The notes under the pieces were generated by a model. It had not been told where the DNA came from. It was given only the letters and a program-made list of their open reading frames with translations, and did not search any database. Positions 56,674 through 64,000 of a stretch of DNA of 64,000 bases are shown here, one piece after another (the stretch's first letter is position 1; each line of letters starts with the position of its first letter). A program made the translations under genes and the position numbers. The stretch is from Acetobacter farinalis (lineage in GTDB: Bacteria; Pseudomonadota; Alphaproteobacteria; Acetobacterales; Acetobacteraceae), in contig NZ_WOTF01000005.1 in assembly GCF_011516935.1 (NCBI RefSeq), positions 1 to 64,000 on the forward strand, written 5' to 3'.

Positions 56674-57771
56674 ATGACACCGAAAAACGCTGCCTTACAA
56701 AAGGACTTTCACGCCGAAGCGTCTAATGCCACGGAGCATGACCCGCGGTGGGAGCGTATCCTCCGGCGTGACAGAACGGCAGATGGTCTGTTCTGGTATT
56801 CCGTTATCACCACAGGAATTTACTGTCGGCCGTCCTGCCCTTCACGCAGGCCGCATGCTGAGAACGCGTGCCTTCATGCCACCCTTGAAGAGGCACGGGC
56901 AACAGGCGCGCGCCCATGCCAGCGCTGTGACCCGGATGGAGCACATGCCGAGGCCAGTCATAACGGGCTGGTAGCGCGTGCGTGCCGATCCATTGAGGCC
57001 AGTGAAACATGTCCTACACTGGAGGTTCTGGCCAAAGAGGCGCAACTCAGCCCCACATATTTCCAGCGTGTTTTCAAGCGTATCGTCGGGCTTTCACCCC
57101 GCCAGTATGGCGAGGCCTGTCGTGCGGGGCGCGTGCGTGCCACCTTGCGCTCTTCTGCAACTGTGACGGAAGCCATCTATGCGGCGGGCTATGCGTCCAG
57201 CAGCCGTTTTTATGAACAGGCTGAGAGCCTGCTGGGCATGAAACCGCGTGCGCTGCACCGTGGTGCTCCGGCGGAACGCCTGCGTTTTGCCGTTGGGGAA
57301 TGCTCTCTGGGGATGATCCTTGTCGCCTCGAGCGCGCGCGGGGTCGTGGCGATCCTTATGGGGGACGATGCGGATGCATTGGCCCGTGATCTGCAGGACC
57401 GCTTTCCCAACGCGGAGCTTGTGGGCGCGGACCCTGACTATGCGGAGCATGTCGCACAGGTCGTGGCGCTTGTCGAAACACCGGCTCTCGGGCTGGAACT
57501 GCCGCTTGATATCCGGGGGACAGCCTTCCAGCAGCGGGTATGGAATGCGCTCCGGGCGGTGCCTGTAGGCCAGAGGGTGACGTATACCGATATCGCCAAA
57601 GCAATCGGGCACCCGGAGTCCGTTCGGGCGGTTGCCAATGCCTGTGGGGCCAATGCTCTAGCGGTCGCAATTCCCTGCCATCGTGTTGTGCGCAGGGATG
57701 GTGCGTTGTCGGGCTATCGCTGGGGTGTTGAGCGCAAGACAGCATTGCTGGAACGGGAGAAAGGGTCATGA
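56674..57771 (+). CDS. ada: Ada: methyl-phosphotriester sensor and O6-methylguanine methyltransferase
   Basis: The 365-residue protein has all three Ada parts in order: a zinc domain with four Cys (C51, C55, C82, C85; the methyl-accepting Cys is the first), an AraC HTH pair (about 105-195, with LSPTYFQRVFKRIVGLSPRQ) and the O6-alkylguanine methyltransferase with Cys335 in AIPCHRVV. It repairs alkylated DNA irreversibly and, once methylated, activates its own operon. It overlaps the next gene by 4 bases. GGAGGA precedes the ATG. Confidence 0.95.
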   Translation: MTPKNAALQKDFHAEASNATEHDPRWERILRRDRTADGLFWYSVITTGIYCRPSCPSRRPHAENACLHATLEEARATGARPCQRCDPDGAHAEASHNGLVARACRSIEASETCPTLEVLAKEAQLSPTYFQRVFKRIVGLSPRQYGEACRAGRVRATLRSSATVTEAIYAAGYASSSRFYEQAESLLGMKPRALHRGAPAERLRFAVGECSLGMILVASSARGVVAILMGDDADALARDLQDRFPNAELVGADPDYAEHVAQVVALVETPALGLELPLDIRGTAFQQRVWNALRAVPVGQRVTYTDIAKAIGHPESVRAVANACGANALAVAIPCHRVVRRDGALSGYRWGVERKTALLEREKGS

Positions 57772-58472
57772 ACCCGGAAACTCTTGCAGCACTGGACTGG
57801 CAGGATAACGCGCGCAGGCTGGATGAGGATGGCTGGGCCGTGATTCCCGGATTGCTGGATGAGGCGACGTGCCGGTCCCTCTCGGCGCTCTATGCGCAGG
57901 GCACCGGGTTTCGCAGCCGTGTCGTCATGGGGCGGCATGGGTTCGGGCGTGGAGAATACTGCTATTTTTCTTATCCACTTCCGCCTCTGGTCACGACTTT
58001 GCGTGAGAAAATTTATCCTTTTCTTGTCCCGACGGCGAACCGCTGGATGGAGCGTATGGGATTTCCGGTCCGTTTCCCTTCAGATCATCAAAGTTTTCTC
58101 GCCCGCTGCCATGCGGCGGGCCAGACGCGCCCCACACCGCTCCTACTGCGGTATGGGGCGGGTGATTATAACTGTCTGCATCAAGATCTTTACGGAGAGC
58201 ATGTTTTTCCCATCCAGCTCGCCGTTCTGCTCTCCTGCCCGGAGAGGGATTTTACCGGGGGTGAGTTCGTGCTGACGGAACAGCGGCCCCGCATGCAATC
58301 CCGTGCGGATGTCGTGCCTCTCAGGATGGGAGATGCCGTGCTGTTTGCCGTCAGCCAGAGGCCGAAGGCTGGTGCGCGTGGAGACTATCGCGTGACACTG
58401 CGGCATGGTGTCAGCCGTGTCCGTAGCGGCCTTCGTCACACGCTGGGGCTTATTTTCCATGATGCAGCCTGA
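57768..58472 (+). CDS. 2OG-Fe(II) oxygenase in the ada operon
   Basis: The 234-residue protein has the double-stranded beta-helix of 2-oxoglutarate/iron oxygenases. H138-x-D140 in NCLHQDLYGEH and H213 in LRHGVSRVRS form the iron triad, and R219 or R223 (GLRHTLGLIFHDA) could hold 2-oxoglutarate. It is not AlkB, which follows. It overlaps both neighbours, so it belongs to the alkylation operon and probably repairs or demethylates a nucleic acid or protein (inference). Confidence 0.88.
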   Translation: MNPETLAALDWQDNARRLDEDGWAVIPGLLDEATCRSLSALYAQGTGFRSRVVMGRHGFGRGEYCYFSYPLPPLVTTLREKIYPFLVPTANRWMERMGFPVRFPSDHQSFLARCHAAGQTRPTPLLLRYGAGDYNCLHQDLYGEHVFPIQLAVLLSCPERDFTGGEFVLTEQRPRMQSRADVVPLRMGDAVLFAVSQRPKAGARGDYRVTLRHGVSRVRSGLRHTLGLIFHDAA

Positions 58473-59106
58473 CCTGTTCGGCACAGCGCGTCCTGATGTG
58501 CTCCTTTCCGCCGGAGCGCTCTTCCTTCCTGATTTTGCCAGGGCACAGGTGGGGAGGTTGCATGCTCATATCCAGAGCATTGCCGCCGGTTCGCCTTTTC
58601 GGCACATGCTCACTCCGGGCGGGCGGTGCATGTCCGTTGCCACGACCAGTTGCGGCAGCTTTGGCTGGACCAGCGGGCGCGGCGGATATCGTTACATGGC
58701 TTTCGATCCCGAGACCAGACAGGCGTGGCCACACATGCCCCCCATATTCCGCGAACTAGCGTATCAGGCCGCCGCCCGCGCAGGCTTTGCGGAGTTTCGC
58801 CCTGATACCTGCCTTGTCAACCGCTATGCACCGGGGGCGCGCTTGTCCCTGCATCAGGATCTGGATGAAGGGGATATGAACGCTCCGATTGTATCCGTCT
58901 CTCTGGGACTTCCGGCTGTCTTTCTCTGGGGAGGCGCGGAACGACGGGACCCCAGGCGGCGTATCACGCTGTGTGAAGGGGATGTGATGGTATGGGGAGG
59001 GGACTCACGCATGAATTTTCACGGGGTTGAACCTGTGCAGGCGGCTGCAGGCGCTGGTGAGCATGGCGCATGTCGCTACAATCTGACATTCCGCAAGGCC
59101 CGATGA
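58459..59106 (+). CDS. alkB: AlkB-type DNA dealkylase
   Basis: The 215-residue protein is AlkB: SCGSFGWTSGRGGYRYMAFD for base contact, HxD in SLHQDLDEGD, the distal His in RMNFHGVEPV and the 2-oxoglutarate arginines in CRYNLTFRKAR. It oxidatively removes methyl groups from 1-meA and 3-meC. It overlaps the preceding 2OG oxygenase by 14 bases and the following tag gene by 4. The start may be 58459 or 58462. Confidence 0.94.
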   Translation: MMQPDLFGTARPDVLLSAGALFLPDFARAQVGRLHAHIQSIAAGSPFRHMLTPGGRCMSVATTSCGSFGWTSGRGGYRYMAFDPETRQAWPHMPPIFRELAYQAAARAGFAEFRPDTCLVNRYAPGARLSLHQDLDEGDMNAPIVSVSLGLPAVFLWGGAERRDPRRRITLCEGDVMVWGGDSRMNFHGVEPVQAAAGAGEHGACRYNLTFRKAR

Positions 59107-59711
59107 CCAATAACGGACACACGCGCTGCCTCTGGGCCAGAACGGATGCCCTGCTTCAGGCCTATCATGACACCGAATGGGGTGTGCCGGAGTATGAGTC
59201 CCGTGCTCTGTGGGAAAAGCTGATGCTTGATGGCTTTCAGGCTGGCCTGTCATGGCGGCTGATTCTGGCCAGGCGAGACGCTTTCCGGGCGGCCTTTGCC
59301 GGGTTCAGACCGGAAATCGTGGCCGGATATGGTGAGACCGAAATCAGCCAGCTACTAGGCAACCGGGAGATTATCCGCTCTCCCACCAAAGTCAGGGCGG
59401 TGATCCGCAATGCCCGCGCCTATCTGGCGATGCAGGACGCGGGCGAGGATTTTTCCGGTTTTGTGTGGGCCAGCGTGCAGGGGCAACCGGTGCCGGGGGA
59501 TGGTTCGGGCACATCAACGCGTTCGGTGGTAGGGGATATGCTCTCCACCGCATTAAAGGCGCGGGGCTTCAGCTTTGTGGGGCCTGTGATTGTGCATGCA
59601 TGGGCGCAGGCCTGCGGTCTTATCAATGATCATGAAACGAACTGTTTCTGCCGAAACAGGACGAGGAACGGACCGCTCGGCCAGTCTGAGGTCTCTCCTT
59701 ATTCTGCGTAA
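59103..59711 (+). CDS. tag: DNA-3-methyladenine glycosylase I
   Basis: The 202-residue protein is Tag. The N-terminal RCLWARTDALLQAYHDTEWG contributes a Cys and His to the zinc snap, and the C-terminal NDHETNCFCR gives the second His and Cys. The central GFQAGLSWRLILARRDAFRA is the glycosylase helix. It excises 3-methyladenine. The start overlaps the alkB stop (ATGA). The last 15 residues extend past the family core. Confidence 0.94.
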   Translation: MTNNGHTRCLWARTDALLQAYHDTEWGVPEYESRALWEKLMLDGFQAGLSWRLILARRDAFRAAFAGFRPEIVAGYGETEISQLLGNREIIRSPTKVRAVIRNARAYLAMQDAGEDFSGFVWASVQGQPVPGDGSGTSTRSVVGDMLSTALKARGFSFVGPVIVHAWAQACGLINDHETNCFCRNRTRNGPLGQSEVSPYSA

Positions 59712-60026: not shown

Positions 60027-62762
60027 ATGTCGGGCATTGCAGATGATGGTGGTTTGAGATTTTTCTGGGGCAAGGCACGCCCTGTGCAACTGGCGCAAGA
60101 CACCGGCTTTTTAATGCACCCGCTTATTGCCCACATGCTGGACGTGGCGGCGGTGGCAATCCTGTTGCCCGGCAGTGAGCGTCTGGGGCTGGATTATCGG
60201 CAACTGGGAATGCTGGTGGCGCTGCATGATATTGGCAAGCTGGTGCCGGGGTTTCAGGCCAAAGTTCCGGAATGCTGGCCGGAACAGGCGTTGGGGGCTT
60301 ACCCGGAGAGAGCCACGTCATCACGCCATGATAGCGATGGTCTGGCTCTTCTGGACCATGTCTGTCAGGACGCACTGGCTCCCCTTTTTGGAGTGGATGC
60401 CGAAGGAAATTCCTGGCTGCCTGACGAAAAGAGCCGAGTAGGGCGCGCCATAGCCGGACACCATGGGGCACCGGTTTCCGCAATTGAAGACAGAGCGCGT
60501 AAAGCTGATATCAAGGTGATCGCGCCATATGCCCGTAAACTTGTCAGCCTTTTGTTTGATCTTTTCCGGCCGCCACCCATACCGCCTTATCTTGCGGCTG
60601 AGGCTCTGCTGCAACTGGAGTGGCGGCTTGCCGGGTTGACGGTACAGGCGGACTGGATCGGCTCCCGGCAGGAGTGGTTTCCATATGTCTCGCCGGATGA
60701 TGTTGCAGATGCTTCCGGTTATTTCTGGAATCACGCGCTGCGGCATGCACAGGCGGCCATCGTGCGTGCAGGGCTTGCTCCTGTCAGCGCGTCACCCTTT
60801 CAGGGGATTGCGCATCTGTTCCCGCATATCAGGACGCCATCACCTGTTCAGGCTCTGATGGAAGTCGCGTCCCTACCGACCGGCCCGACGCTGGTTGTTA
60901 TTGAGGACATGACGGGTTCAGGCAAGACGGAAGCGGCACTGGTGGCGGCGCATCGGTTGATGGCGGCGGGGCGGGCAAACGGCCTGTTTGTTGCGCTGCC
61001 AACCATGGCCACAGCCAATGCCATGTTTGATCGGCTGGCTATGGCGTACCGCAGCCTGTTCCAGCCTTCCTCTCACCCCTCTCTTGCGCTGGCGCACGGG
61101 CGTGCCTTGCTTGATGAGCGCTTTGTCTCGGTGCTGGCGCCTGAGGATGCTCTGGAGGGCGCAGCCTTGAAAACGGACCGTGCTGAGGCCGCCGAAGTGT
61201 GCTGTTCAGCGTGGCTGGGGAGTGAATCGCGCAGGGCACTGCTCGCGCAGGTGGGTGTCGGCACGATTGATCAGGCGTTGATGGCGGTCCTGCCGGTCCG
61301 GTTTGCCACCATGCGGCAGGCCGGGCTCGCCGGAAAGGTGCTGCTGGTGGATGAATGCCATGCTTATGATCCGTACATGCAGGAAGAAATGGCCGCCCTG
61401 CTGCGCTTTCATGCGGCCATGGGCGGTTCTGCCATTCTTCTTTCCGCAACGTTGACCCGTGCTGTACGCCAGAAGCTCGCAGCGGCTTTCAGAGAAGGCT
61501 TGCGTCAGGAAGACCCTGCGGAGCTGTCCAGCACGGCCTATCCGCTTGTGACCCTTGTGGGGCAGGTAGGGGCGGAAGAACTGCCCTGCGCTCCGCGGGC
61601 CGGGCTGGAACGGACCATTGCGGTAAGGCAGGTCTGTGACGAGGCGTCTGTTATGACGGAAATCGTGAGTGCGGCATGCAAGGGGGCTGCGGTCGCATGG
61701 GTGCGCAATACGGTGGATGATGTGATTGCCTCGGCAAAAGCCCTTAAGGAAAAAGGGATCGAGGCCATGGTCTTTCATGCCCGTTTTGCCATGGTGGATC
61801 GTCTGGCTATTGAGCGTTCGGTACTTGCCCGCTTCGGAAAGGACAGCACAGCGCCAGACCGGGCCGCAGTGCTGGTGGCCAGTCAGGTTATTGAACAGTC
61901 TCTGGATCTGGATTTTGATGTGCTCTGCACAGATCTCGCCCCCATGGATCTGATCATTCAGCGGGCTGGCAGGCTTCGTCGCCATAAGCGGGATGAGCGG
62001 CCTGTTGAGCGTGATGAAATCTGCCTTTTCTCACCTGATCCTGTTGAAGACCCAGATCCAAAATGGATCAGCCGGGTTCTGCCTGGCACCGCCGCTGTTT
62101 ATCGTGATGCTGCCCTTTTATGGAGAACTGCAAGAGCCTTGAAGCGCGCAGGTGCCATACGAAGCCCTGACTCTGTGCGTACCTTAATTGAGGAAGCTGG
62201 TGAGACAATTGAGGAAGCTGGTGAGACGTCCGATGTGCCGGCTGGCCTGACGGGTGCCGCCAGGGATGTTGAAGGGAAAGGGCGTGCGGCCCGTGGTGCT
62301 GCTGCCCGAAATGTTCTGAATTACCTCACTGGATATGCTCCGGAGGGGGCTTTGTGGGAGCGCGACATACGAACACCCACACGGCTTGAAGAGCGCCCGT
62401 CTGTTACGGTGCGTCTCGGTGTCATGAGGGGCGGGGAGGTTGTGCCCTGGGCCGCGTTGAAGGACAGCACGCTTGCGGCACCACATGAGAAGAAGCGCGC
62501 CTGGGCACTTTCTGAGGTTTCCGTGGCGCGTCATACCCTTGCGGCGTGTCCTGTCTCGGAAGACCGGAAGGCTGCGGTCGCTGCGGCCCGGTCTGACTGG
62601 TCTCGCTGGGAGCGGGAGGCGGAAGACCTTTATCTGCTGTTGATTCTGGAAGAGGCAGGAGAGGGATGGGAAGGGGCGGGCTGTAGCGAGCAGGGGCGAG
62701 ATATTGTGGTCAGATATGATCAGCAGTATGGTCTGCTCATCGTTCCCGCCTTGGCGGGATGA
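60027..62762 (+). CDS. cas3: Cas3 nuclease-helicase, type I-E
   Basis: The 911-residue protein has an N-terminal HD nuclease (H31/H36, HD at 67-68 in ALHDIGK, HH at 145-146 in GHHGAP) and a superfamily 2 helicase: Walker A GSGKT at about 297-301, DECH at 442-445, SAT at 473-475 and a late QRAGRLRRH motif VI. It is recruited by Cascade to unwind and shred target DNA. All catalytic motifs look intact. GAGGGG precedes the ATG. The last codons and stop form a CRISPR-repeat-like sequence. A 21-base tandem duplication lengthens the linker at about residues 720-735. Confidence 0.95.
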   Translation: MSGIADDGGLRFFWGKARPVQLAQDTGFLMHPLIAHMLDVAAVAILLPGSERLGLDYRQLGMLVALHDIGKLVPGFQAKVPECWPEQALGAYPERATSSRHDSDGLALLDHVCQDALAPLFGVDAEGNSWLPDEKSRVGRAIAGHHGAPVSAIEDRARKADIKVIAPYARKLVSLLFDLFRPPPIPPYLAAEALLQLEWRLAGLTVQADWIGSRQEWFPYVSPDDVADASGYFWNHALRHAQAAIVRAGLAPVSASPFQGIAHLFPHIRTPSPVQALMEVASLPTGPTLVVIEDMTGSGKTEAALVAAHRLMAAGRANGLFVALPTMATANAMFDRLAMAYRSLFQPSSHPSLALAHGRALLDERFVSVLAPEDALEGAALKTDRAEAAEVCCSAWLGSESRRALLAQVGVGTIDQALMAVLPVRFATMRQAGLAGKVLLVDECHAYDPYMQEEMAALLRFHAAMGGSAILLSATLTRAVRQKLAAAFREGLRQEDPAELSSTAYPLVTLVGQVGAEELPCAPRAGLERTIAVRQVCDEASVMTEIVSAACKGAAVAWVRNTVDDVIASAKALKEKGIEAMVFHARFAMVDRLAIERSVLARFGKDSTAPDRAAVLVASQVIEQSLDLDFDVLCTDLAPMDLIIQRAGRLRRHKRDERPVERDEICLFSPDPVEDPDPKWISRVLPGTAAVYRDAALLWRTARALKRAGAIRSPDSVRTLIEEAGETIEEAGETSDVPAGLTGAARDVEGKGRAARGAAARNVLNYLTGYAPEGALWERDIRTPTRLEERPSVTVRLGVMRGGEVVPWAALKDSTLAAPHEKKRAWALSEVSVARHTLAACPVSEDRKAAVAAARSDWSRWEREAEDLYLLLILEEAGEGWEGAGCSEQGRDIVVRYDQQYGLLIVPALAG
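62186..62227 (+). repeat. 21-base tandem duplication inside cas3
   Basis: AATTGAGGAAGCTGGTGAGAC occurs twice in direct succession (62186-62206 and 62207-62227; identical over all 21 bases), giving the repeated peptide EEAGETI-EEAGET. It keeps the frame and lies in a linker-like part of Cas3. Confidence 0.9.
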
Positions 62763-62766
62763 ACCG
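62738..62766 (+). CRISPR. CRISPR-repeat-like sequence overlapping the cas3 3' end
   Basis: This stretch resembles a type I-E repeat. GTTCCCGCC and GGCGGGATGAACCG copy the GTTCCCCGC...GGGGATAAACCG pattern of the well-known E. coli repeat, with stem CCCGC/GCGGG and loop CTTG. It covers the last six codons and the stop of cas3. It is followed by a 21-base spacer and a second degenerate repeat. Confidence 0.65.
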
Positions 62767-62787
62767 TCTTGAGCCGTAGGCCGGTTT

Positions 62788-62816
62788 ATGTTCCCTGCGT
62801 AAGCAGGGATTTAAAA
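62788..62816 (+). CRISPR. Second degenerate CRISPR-repeat-like sequence
   Basis: ATGTTCCCTGCGTAAGCAGG followed by GATTTAAAA aligns without gaps to the E. coli I-E repeat at 17 of 29 positions. The stem CCCTGC/GCAGGG has a compensatory C-G to T-A change and a 4-base loop. The 3' handle has drifted (ATTTAAAA for ATAAACCG). Confidence 0.6.
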
Positions 62817-62822
62817 AATAAG

Positions 62823-62840
62823 AAGTCTTGAGCCGTAGGC
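62823..62840 (+). promoter_or_regulatory. Candidate protospacer of the mini-crRNA with AAG PAM
   Basis: AAG at 62823-62825 is followed by TCTTGAGCCGTAGGC (62826-62840), identical to the first 15 bases of the spacer at 62767-62781. The G of AAG also matches the last base of the repeat, as in real type I-E targets. A longer match is absent, so Cascade would bind but Cas3 cutting should be weak. The site lies upstream of casA. Confidence 0.55.
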
Positions 62841-62849
62841 TTAATTAGG

Positions 62850-63032
62850 TTGATTCGGTTTGCGAATCGGTTTAAACAAAAACAGCCACCCCAAGCGAGC
62901 TTGAGGTGGCGGGAAGGAAAATTAAAGGGAGGAGCGTAACGTGCGATACACGTTTGCGAGAAGAGTATAAGGGGCAATTATGTCCCCTAAGACTAATAAC
63001 CCTGCCTGTCAGATTGCAGCTGATAGGCAGGG
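62850..63032 (+). promoter_or_regulatory. Structured casA leader region with three hairpins
   Basis: Hairpins are seen at 62852-62868 (GATTCG/CGAATC), 62885-62910 (GCCACCcCAAGC with GCTTGaGGTGGC) and 63000-63032 (CCCTGCCTGTCAG with CTGATAGGCAGGG, one mismatch). None has a U-run directly after it. A TATAAT at 63041-63046 lies close before the casA start but lacks a good -35. The first hairpin is in the same register after the 16-base repeat as the CRISPR-like hairpin, so it may be a third, strongly decayed repeat. Confidence 0.4.
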
Positions 63033-63072
63033 CCATATTATATAATTATTTCAAATTAGGATGTCTAATTAA

Positions 63073-64000
63073 ATGACGGCGTCTGAATTTTTCAATCTCA
63101 TTACAGACGCATGGTTGCCAGTCCTCCATAAATCCGGCGCACGGAGCGTCATTCGCCCCGCCCAGATTGTAGAGGGATTGAAAGACGATCCGATTATCGG
63201 ATTTTCCTGGCCGCGTGCGGACTTTCGGGTCGCCACCTTTGAATTTCTGATCGGCCTTGTGGCCACAGCGTGCCCGCCAACAGGCAACCGGGCGTGGTTG
63301 CAGGGGTGGAATACGCCGCCTTCTGTCGAAAAGCTGGATGAAGCCTTTGCGGCTGTTACCGATGCATTCTGGCTGGATGGCCCCGGCCCACGTTTTCTTC
63401 AGGATTTTGAAGATCTTCAGAGCGGACAGGAGCTTATCGAACGGCTGCTGATTGAGGCACCGGGGGAAAGCACTGTCAAACGCAATGCCGATCTTTTTGT
63501 CCATCGGGGGCAGGTGGAGCGTCTGGGGCGGGGTGCTGCGGCAATGGCGCTGTTCACCCTGCAATCTTGGGCGCCAAGTGGCGGCGCAGGGAATATGACA
63601 GGCCTGCGCGGTGGTGGTCCGCTGACTACTCTTGTGCTCCCCTCGGAAGAGGCCAGCGTGTGGGAGATTGTCTGGGCGAATGTTCCTGAAGGTCCCCCCG
63701 CAAAAGAGGGCGATATAAAAACAGTTTTCCCATGGATGGCCCCCACGGTGGTGTCGGGCAAAGAGGGAACGGATGTGCGGGCAACAGAGAACGCGCACCC
63801 GCTGCAATGCTGGTGGGGTATGCCAAGGCGCATCCGCCTCGATTTTGAGACTGTTGAAGAGGGTACCTGTGATCTGACAGGGCAACCGGATGACCGCTTG
63901 GTGTCGGGATGGCGCCAGCGGCCCTACGGCCCGAAATATGCCGACTGGATTGGCATGCCGTATGGAGCGGGCGGGACCATTCACCCCCTTACACCGCGCT
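63073..64000 (+). CDS. casA: Cascade subunit Cse1/CasA (Cas8e), cut by window end
   Basis: The frame starts at ATG 63073 and stays open for 309 codons to the window end, so the C-terminal part is missing. It reads SEFFNLITDAWLPVLHKSGA, then RVATFEFLIGLVATACPPTG, NADLFVHRGQVERLGRGAAA, WAPSGGAGNMTGLRGGGPLT and CWWGMPRRIRLDFE, the type I-E large subunit that reads the PAM. Family length is about 500. The 310-base gap after cas3 shows it has its own promoter. A weak AGG lies before the start. Confidence 0.92.
   Translation, partial: MTASEFFNLITDAWLPVLHKSGARSVIRPAQIVEGLKDDPIIGFSWPRADFRVATFEFLIGLVATACPPTGNRAWLQGWNTPPSVEKLDEAFAAVTDAFWLDGPGPRFLQDFEDLQSGQELIERLLIEAPGESTVKRNADLFVHRGQVERLGRGAAAMALFTLQSWAPSGGAGNMTGLRGGGPLTTLVLPSEEASVWEIVWANVPEGPPAKEGDIKTVFPWMAPTVVSGKEGTDVRATENAHPLQCWWGMPRRIRLDFETVEEGTCDLTGQPDDRLVSGWRQRPYGPKYADWIGMPYGAGGTIHPLTPR

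What the first reader, a model, noticed from the sequence alone, without database searches (positions are those of the whole stretch)
62738..62840. Possible RNA-guided autorepression of the type I-E cas operon
Seen: the end of cas3 forms a type I-E-like repeat (62738-62766). A second degenerate repeat lies at 62788-62816 with a paired stem. The 21-base spacer between them begins TCTTGAGCCGTAGGC, and the same 15 bases recur at 62826-62840 directly after AAG, the type I-E PAM. The 16-base direct repeat includes the G that is shared by repeat end and PAM in real I-E targets. Known: CreR/CreTA-type RNAs use degenerate repeats and a short spacer with partial match to the cas promoter to make the effector repress its own genes. 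Inference: this unit makes a Cascade-bound RNA that silences casA and senses effector or anti-CRISPR state. Unusual points: the first repeat overlaps cas3 coding sequence, so Cas6e processing would also cut the cas3 mRNA.
Basis: partly seen in the sequence, partly recalled or inferred. Interest (0 to 1): 0.92.

Follow-up and report, generated by a model that had tools for sequence, protein, structure and literature searches.

The report
CRISPR-guarded toxin beside cas genes
A bacterium of the vinegar-bacteria family appears to use its own CRISPR machine, aimed by a small guide RNA hidden at the end of the cas3 gene, to keep a tiny built-in toxin switched off, so that losing CRISPR would harm the cell.

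Summary
By a fixed rule the same unit lies upstream of cas8e in 22 of 73 non-redundant I-E loci. Guides differ, yet each matches its own downstream site, with the match dropping at positions 6 and 12, bases that type I-E Cascade flips out. This points to selection for Cascade pairing.

The interpretation needs changing. In the window the target sits by a weak promoter-like site that first reads a 5' hairpin, a strong Shine-Dalgarno and a nine-codon mini-ORF with tandem AGA AGA at codons 7-8 (62941-62970). Related loci have AGA AGA, AGA TTA or ATA ATA there. That is close to CreT, the tRNA-sequestering toxin of CreTA modules. In five of 22 loci the target lies next to cas8e without such a mini-ORF, as in CreR. 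So: a predicted type I-E CreTA whose guide is carved from the cas3 3' end; added cas autorepression by read-through is possible. Nothing was tested at the bench. In the papers seen here, rare-codon CreT was described only for haloarchaeal I-B systems.

The parts
60027..62762 (+). cas3 (911 aa); its last codons and TGA stop form part of the first repeat
   Evidence: TIGR01587 and TIGR01596 over cut-off; stop at -7 relative to the spacer
62738..62766 (+). psiR1, first degenerate repeat; 5' handle ATGAACCG at 62759-62766; Cas6e cut inferred between 62758 and 62759
   Evidence: handle identical to array repeat; hairpin
62767..62787 (+). psiS, 21-nt guide (spacer)
62788..62816 (+). psiR2, second degenerate repeat; Cas6e cut inferred between 62808 and 62809
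62759..62808 (+). inferred mature CreA guide RNA, 50 nt
   Evidence: inference from type I-E Cas6e processing (recalled); not observed
62823..62840 (+). AAG PAM (62823-62825) and the 15-base guide match (62826-62840)
62850..62878 (+). promoter-like -35 TTGATT (62850-62855), 17 nt, -10 TAAACA (62873-62878); weak, 7 of 12 consensus bases; the -35 would lie inside a 32-nt Cascade footprint
   Evidence: the stricter scan reports no promoter here
62885..62910 (+). 5' hairpin of the proposed creT RNA
   Evidence: similar hairpins seen by eye at the same place in several relatives, not counted
62927..62934 (+). strong Shine-Dalgarno GGGAGGAG
62941..62970 (+). proposed creT mini-ORF GTG CGA TAC ACG TTT GCG AGA AGA GTA TAA
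62959..62964 (+). tandem rare AGA AGA at codons 7-8
   Evidence: (AGA 3.6 per 1000; no AGA-AGA in 14,666 codon pairs of the window's ORFs)
63000..63032 (+). 3' stem-loop after the mini-ORF (13 pairs), no U-run
   Evidence: (-25.8 kcal/mol for 62990-63050, z -4.4); one search finds no T-tailed terminator on this strand in 62600-63100
63073..63999 (+). cas8e/casA, 5' part (runs past the window)
   Evidence: TIGR02547 190.6 bits

Best explanation
A type I-E CreTA-like RNA toxin-antitoxin module set between cas3 and cas8e. The cas3 transcript runs through two degenerate repeats. Cas6e would cut both to release a 50-nt crRNA-like guide (CreA) with the normal 8-nt handle, a 21-nt guide and the 3' hairpin. 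Cascade loaded with CreA binds the AAG-flanked partial match; 15 pairs would give binding but too short an R-loop for Cas3 cutting, and the complex would cover the -35 of the creT promoter. If Cascade is lost or blocked, creT is transcribed. Its strong SD drives ribosomes onto a short mini-ORF that stalls on two rare codons and ties up a scarce tRNA, here tRNA-Arg(UCU), arresting growth. So the cell would be addicted to Cascade. Shown: anatomy, conservation of guide-target pairing with dips at positions 6 and 12, and rare codons held at codons 7-8. Inferred: transcription, processing, repression and toxicity. Possible addition: read-through from the same promoter into cas8e, so that CreA also tunes cas expression.
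For: Guide-target pairs in 22 of 73 non-redundant loci, guides differing in sequence, 19 AAG and 3 ATG PAMs (only AAG, ATG, AGG and GAG were allowed). Match frequency 0.95-1.0 at positions 1-5, 0.27 at 6, 0.82-1.0 at 7-11, 0.18 at 12, 0.73-0.91 at 13-17, then 0.18-0.45; choosing the target without skipping any position and leaving out the one under test gives 6 of 22 at position 6 and 4 of 22 at 12, against 16-22 at the others up to 17. A second repeat, not used for selection, in 22 of 22 by a motif rule and 21 of 22 by a hairpin rule. Guide lengths 20-21 (3 loci), 26 (2), 31-34 (16), 38 (1), near 6-nt steps about the array's 32. Blind mini-ORF rule: rare codons at codon 7 in 9 and codon 8 in 8 of 14 loci, against 7 of 126 at codons 2-6 and 9-12; sum 17 against a mean of 2.2 and maximum of 8 in 2000 resamplings; 1 each in the two other frames. 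The rare codon changes (AGA, ATA, TTA) while the place stays. An SD-led start with a tandem rare pair near cas8e: 10 of 22 loci with the guide unit, 6 of 51 without, 2 of 27 from the phylum sample. CTA, TTA, AGA and ATA are the rarest sense codons of the window's ORFs; ARAGORN reads one tRNA-Arg(UCU) among 43 tRNA places of the genome. A pattern for the start of creT recurs with 0-1 mismatch in 4 of 397 genomes, own included, each time at the cas locus. Published CreT has similar parts (PMC8501985, passages). A type I-E CreTA in the cas3-casA gap has experimental support in Citrobacter rodentium (PMC12055562, section 13).
Against: No RNA or toxicity data. The promoter is weak by consensus (7 of 12) and the strict scan found none. 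The mini-ORFs of related genera share flanking sequence, so the 14 are not independent, and I noticed codons 7-8 by eye before testing them on the same loci; the rule also counts codons past stops. Of 17 long-gap loci, 3 have no SD-led start under the rule (L049, L065, L080), one has a two-codon ORF (L078), one picks a wrong frame (L013), and two carry rare codons elsewhere (L100, L105). In L020 a stop follows the start codon. ORF lengths vary widely (4 to 46 codons after the start; L058 has 46, L017 31), unlike the six-codon toxin of H. hubeiense. The mini-ORF lies at a rather constant 117-154 nt before cas8e in 12 of 13 loci (L105: 313), which would also suit a leader. No terminator with a T-run separates creT from cas8e. 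The C. rodentium I-E CreT has no rare codons and its CreA lies on the other strand.
Confidence: 0.72

Rival explanations
1. CreR: the guide represses the cas operon promoter itself and the mini-ORF is incidental.
For: Same guide anatomy; in 5 of 22 loci (L012, L028, L042, L063, L101) the target is 64-155 nt from cas8e and no SD-led rare pair is found; CreR is reported for I-B, I-E and V-A systems (PMC13131331 passage).
Against: In the window 247 nt, a 5' hairpin, a strong SD and an AGA-AGA mini-ORF lie between target and cas8e, and rare codons hold their place in relatives.
Confidence: 0.1
2. Both at once (not exclusive of the best explanation): one Cascade-repressed promoter makes a leader that carries the toxin mini-ORF and reads on into cas8e, so lowered Cascade raises both toxin and Cas proteins.
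For: No T-tailed terminator on this strand in 62600-63100; in a haloarchaeon, deleting the creTA-bearing cas6-cas8 gap cut transcription of the cas genes downstream by 72-93% (PMC9458426 passage); CreTA-like, CreR-like and bare loci are scattered over the Cas8e tree.
Against: The 13-pair stem-loop at 63000-63032 and a TATAAT at 63041-63046 could end creT and start cas8e separately; untested.
Confidence: 0.35
3. The mini-ORF is a leader peptide or attenuator that times cas8e translation or transcription by stalling at rare codons; it is not a toxin.
For: Position upstream of cas8e at a fairly constant distance (117-154 nt in 12 of 13 loci); SD; hairpins on both sides.
Against: The amino acid is not conserved, only rarity. 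Among 51 loci without a called guide unit, 6 have some SD-led rare pair; two have it at codons 7-8: L060, which by eye also has the two repeats and a guide, and L076, whose ORF lies inside the upstream gene by the gap estimate and was not followed up. This fits a mini-ORF that needs its repressor.
Confidence: 0.12
4. Remnant of a decayed CRISPR array with a chance self-match.
For: Repeats are degenerate.
Against: Swapped guide candidates reach 12 of 15 in 0.29% of trials against 21 of 73 real loci; mismatch dips at positions 6 and 12.
Confidence: 0.02

Closest known systems
Haloarchaeal type I-B CreTA (Haloarcula hispanica, Halobacterium hubeiense; PMC8501985, passages seen)
   Same: Degenerate repeats (two in H. 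hubeiense), partial guide match to the promoter of a small RNA; mini-ORF with tandem rare AGA or AUA codons and a stem-loop after it; strong SD in H. hispanica; set in the cas locus.
   Different: Type I-B and archaeal, between cas6 and cas8, rare codons directly or two codons after the start. Here type I-E in Acetobacteraceae, first repeat overlapping cas3, rare codons at codons 7-8, ORFs of varied length, extra 5' hairpin.
Citrobacter rodentium type I-E CreTA (PMC12055562, section 13 seen)
   Same: Type I-E, cas3-casA gap, Cascade-repressed translated toxin, partial match beside a PAM near the promoter.
   Different: There a 96-bp ORF without rare codons and a crRNA-like unit on the opposite strand; here a nine-codon mini-ORF with rare codons and a guide on the cas strand overlapping cas3.
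CreR, cas-regulating RNA (Liu et al. 2023, Cell Host Microbe; known here only through passages of reviews)
   Same: crRNA-like guide with partial match to a cas promoter; reported for type I-E.
   Different: CreR is generally not coupled with a toxin gene; the window has a CreT-like mini-ORF. The short-gap relatives do fit CreR.
Acinetobacter type I-F CreTA (PMC10097628, passages seen)
   Same: Bacterial Cascade-repressed small toxic RNA.
   Different: Type I-F; that toxin is described as likely acting on RNAs needed to initiate protein synthesis, and its guide does not follow the seed rule; the guides here do.

Membership tests
CreTA | creA: one or two degenerate repeats flanking a spacer-like guide, with Cas6 handle kept | tested here: met
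   handle identical to the array's last 8 nt
CreTA | Partial guide match beside a PAM at the toxin promoter | tested here: inconclusive
   match and PAM met; the promoter is only a weak consensus match
CreTA | creT: strong start signals, tandem rare codons, stem-loop (tRNA-sequestering kind) | tested here: met
CreTA | creT is toxic when derepressed; Cascade and CreA needed to silence it | not testable with these tools
   needs bench work
CreTA | Lies in the cas locus it guards | tested here: met
CreR | crRNA-like guide with limited match near a cas promoter | tested here: inconclusive
   target 247 nt upstream of cas8e with a mini-ORF between; promoter of cas8e unknown
CreR | No coupled toxin gene | tested here: inconclusive
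   a CreT-like mini-ORF is present but its toxicity is not shown
Type I-E crRNA-like guide | Type I-E PAM and mismatch tolerance at guide positions 6 and 12 | tested here: met
   over 22 loci (the window's own guide matches at both positions); position 18 uninformative because the match ends near 17

The most novel reading that the evidence does not exclude
A slot between cas3 and cas8e, common in Acetobacteraceae type I-E systems, whose guide RNA is usually cut from the cas3 mRNA end, and in which the cargo under guide control is exchanged in evolution between cas genes alone (CreR) and a rare-codon minigene toxin ahead of the cas genes. The toxin keeps the stall at codons 7-8 but changes which tRNA it starves (decoding AGA, ATA or TTA). 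Cas6e cutting of the cas3 mRNA would tie Cas3 output to the same circuit.
Probability: 0.4. Interest if true: 0.75.

Novelty: new variant of a known kind. Interest (0 to 1): 0.62.

Why it matters
It would be a bacterial, type I-E CreTA of the tRNA-sequestering kind, which in the papers seen here was shown only for haloarchaeal I-B systems. It offers about a dozen predicted toxins that differ in which rare codon they use, and natural pairs of CreTA-like and CreR-like loci at one site, so how a CRISPR regulator becomes an addiction module, or the reverse, can be tested directly in acetic acid bacteria. It also suggests that a Cas6e repeat can be written into the 3' end of cas3.

Tried and rejected
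Considered and set aside: plain array remnant; cas autorepression alone as the main role in this window; a probably chance Rfam hit to uxuA RNA (24.1 bits against a gathering score of 66.8, E 0.24). L094 passed the match threshold but lacks a convincing second repeat and was dropped, leaving 22 of 23.

Loci used and left out: the 94 are the window, 20 of 21 loci, 64 other rows (of 82 rows one is the window itself and 17 were left out: below cut-off, truncated start, second fragments or contig edge), 6 of the 11 other rows, and G026, G029 and G034; G006, G028 and G036 (45-47% identity) were not examined.

27 loci from a sample of 398 genomes across the phylum: none reaches 12 of 15 (best 11); guides were sought on the cas strand only, so the C. 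rodentium arrangement would be missed there and in the main survey. The creT pattern also matches with two mismatches in six further genomes, and the reversed control pattern matches in 23 by my count, so two-mismatch hits mean nothing; the pattern covers only the window-like creT subgroup. A Cas8e tree of 46 of the 73 loci shows the three kinds interspersed with no clustering beyond shuffles (458, 500 and 124 of 500 as low), so the number of gains and losses is not resolved. The rule undercounts: L060 (guide unit and creT-like ORF, poor match) and L083 (decayed handle, AAA before the match) were found only by eye. The swap control uses all handle-like candidates, most of them not real guides. 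No chance control was made for promoter offsets, guide lengths, the second repeat or hairpins in relatives.

Literature: Liu 2023 (Cell Host Microbe) is not held and Li 2021 (Science) was not looked up; both are cited through other papers and recall. Only passages were seen of PMC8501985, PMC9458426 (also its abstract), PMC10097628, PMC12737573, PMC12948488, PMC13131331 and PMC8730458; of PMC12055562 section 13 and passages. Absence from print rests on listings only (one search was too unspecific to count); supplements were not read.

Changed on re-check: the claim of a dip at position 18 was withdrawn; the near-constant distance of the mini-ORF to cas8e now counts for the leader rival (0.12, best explanation 0.72); the exclusivity claim for L060 was corrected for L076.
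Full report
What is there. The window ends in a type I-E cas locus: cas3 at 60027-62762 and the start of cas8e/casA at 63073. An array with repeat GCGTTCCCCGCACATGCGGGGATGAACCG (82 copies of an exact 20-mer, period 61) begins about 6.2 kb downstream of 63000. The first repeat includes the end of cas3: read in frame it ends V-P-A-L-A-G-stop, and the TGA stop sits in the 8-nt handle, which is identical to the array's. The guide's seed plus PAM (AAGTCTTGAGCC) occurs once in the genome.

Is it more than chance? I took the sequence upstream of cas8e from 94 I-E loci (list and omissions in Tried and rejected), 73 after removing near-copies. Rule: an 8-nt handle with at most two changes, then the best downstream match of the first 17 guide bases behind AAG, ATG, AGG or GAG, positions 6 and 12 not counted. 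The scores are bimodal: 50 loci at 10 of 15 or less, 23 at 11 or more. Guide candidates swapped between loci reach 11 in 2.3%, 12 in 0.29% and 13 in 0.1% of 14,600 trials. One of the 23 (L094) lacks a convincing second repeat and was dropped. In the other 22 a second repeat is found by a motif rule, in 21 also by a hairpin rule, although it played no part in the selection. The stop codon of the best upstream open frame (cas3, inferred from position) lies within the first repeat in 18 of 22; in 11 it is the TGA of the handle. In L034 and L100 it lies 79 and 39 nt before the guide, in L042 the longest frame runs past it, and in L101 none was found.

How it pairs. Over the 22 loci the match is nearly complete at guide positions 1-5, high at 7-11 (0.82-1.0) and 13-17 (0.73-0.91), and falls to 0.27 at 6 and 0.18 at 12; from 18 on it is 0.18-0.45, so position 18 says nothing. 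Choosing the target without skipping any position and leaving out the position under test gives the same dips: 6 and 4 of 22, against 16-22 at the other positions up to 17. The window's own guide matches at both 6 and 12. Flipped-out bases at every sixth position are established for type I-E Cascade (recalled). Guides differ between genera while the match to the genome's own site is kept. I read this as selection for Cascade binding. Guide lengths fall at 20-21, 26, 31-34 and 38, close to 6-nt steps about the array's 32. The best -35-like hexamer starts 24-32 nt after the protospacer start in 12 of 22 loci (no chance control).

What is controlled. Seventeen loci have at least 200 nt between target and cas8e, five have 64-155 nt. 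In many of the long ones a hairpin, a Shine-Dalgarno and a short ORF follow the promoter region. Under a blind rule (best SD-led start 60-175 nt past the target), 14 of 17 have such a start. Rare codons (AGA, ATA, AGG, CTA, TTA) sit at codon 7 in 9 and at codon 8 in 8 of these 14, against 7 of 126 at codons 2-6 and 9-12. The sum of 17 compares with a mean of 2.2 and a maximum of 8 in 2000 resamplings; the other two frames give 1 each. I had noticed codons 7-8 by eye first, and the ORFs of close genera are homologous, so these numbers overstate independence. The pairs change between AGA AGA (window, L023, L034, L044), AGA TTA (L043, L045), ATA ATA (L013, in the right frame only by eye), ATA AGA (L020, with a stop after the start codon) and single rare codons (L017 TTA and L058 AGA at codon 7, L064 AGA at codon 8); L100 and L105 have AGA AGA and AGG ATA at other codons. 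A looser scan for any SD-led tandem rare pair within 420 nt of cas8e finds 10 of 22 loci with the guide unit, 6 of 51 without, and 2 of 27 of the phylum sample. In the window's 40 mechanically called ORFs AGA is used 3.6 and ATA 4.3 times per thousand codons, with no AGA-AGA or ATA-ATA and 6 rare pairs in all among 14,666 codon pairs. Of the 43 tRNA places in the genome, ARAGORN reads one with anticodon UCU.

Mechanism. These parts resemble the published description of CreT: strong SD, start codon, two consecutive rare codons, stable stem-loop (PMC8501985, passages); there the rare codons come directly or two codons after the start, and tie up a scarce tRNA. The proposal is therefore a CreTA module guarding a type I-E system: CreA is cut from the cas3 transcript, Cascade-CreA sits on the creT promoter, and loss of Cascade frees a tRNA-sequestering mini-ORF. 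A type I-E CreTA in the same gap has experimental support in Citrobacter rodentium, but with a 96-bp ORF without rare codons and the guide on the other strand (PMC12055562, section 13). In the five short-gap loci the same guide anatomy would act near the cas8e start directly, which is CreR, reported for I-B, I-E and V-A systems (PMC13131331, passage; original not held). The Cas8e tree places CreTA-like, CreR-like and bare loci side by side (the window, A. indonesiensis L012 and a bare Acetobacter locus L011 form one supported set of three), so the slot seems to change cargo, although the tree does not fix how often.

Limits. No expression, processing or toxicity was tested. The window promoter is weak by consensus. 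No terminator with a T-run follows creT on this strand, so read-through into cas8e and hence a double role is open; I put 0.35 on that. The near-constant distance of the mini-ORF to cas8e (117-154 nt in 12 of 13) leaves room for a leader function. The unit was not found in 27 I-E loci taken from a phylum-wide sample, so it looks concentrated in Acetobacteraceae and some other Alphaproteobacteria (L100, L101, L105). The host genus Acetobacter is inferred from the nearest Cas8e relative, 78% identical.

Noticed in passing
window 62759-62789: The CreA handle ATGAACCG can pair with CGGTTTAT at the end of the guide (8 bp with one G-U), closing the guide into a loop; the other guides were not folded, so it may be an accident of the free 3' part of the guide.
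   Followed up: partly
L020, 120-160 nt after the target: The mini-ORF of Roseomonas sp. GC11 has a stop right after its start codon, while its near twin L021 shows by eye no such mini-ORF and only a partial guide match; this looks like toxin decay.
   Followed up: partly
L060 and L083, cas3-cas8e gap: Both carry the two-repeat unit by eye but failed the match rule; L060 also has a GTG mini-ORF with AGA AGA at codons 7-8. The count of 22 is a lower bound.
   Followed up: partly
window 62783-62844: Weak Rfam match to uxuA RNA (RF03061, 24.1 bits, below the gathering score of 66.8) spanning the second repeat and the target; probably chance.
   Followed up: no
window 56674-59711: ORFs upstream of cas3 look by eye like an alkylation-repair cluster (Ada-, AlkB- and Tag-like, names recalled); no family search was made.
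   Followed up: no
L018, upstream of cas8e: Array repeats, some degenerate, lie within 500 nt upstream of cas8e in Nguyenibacter vanlangensis, a possible source for such units.
   Followed up: no
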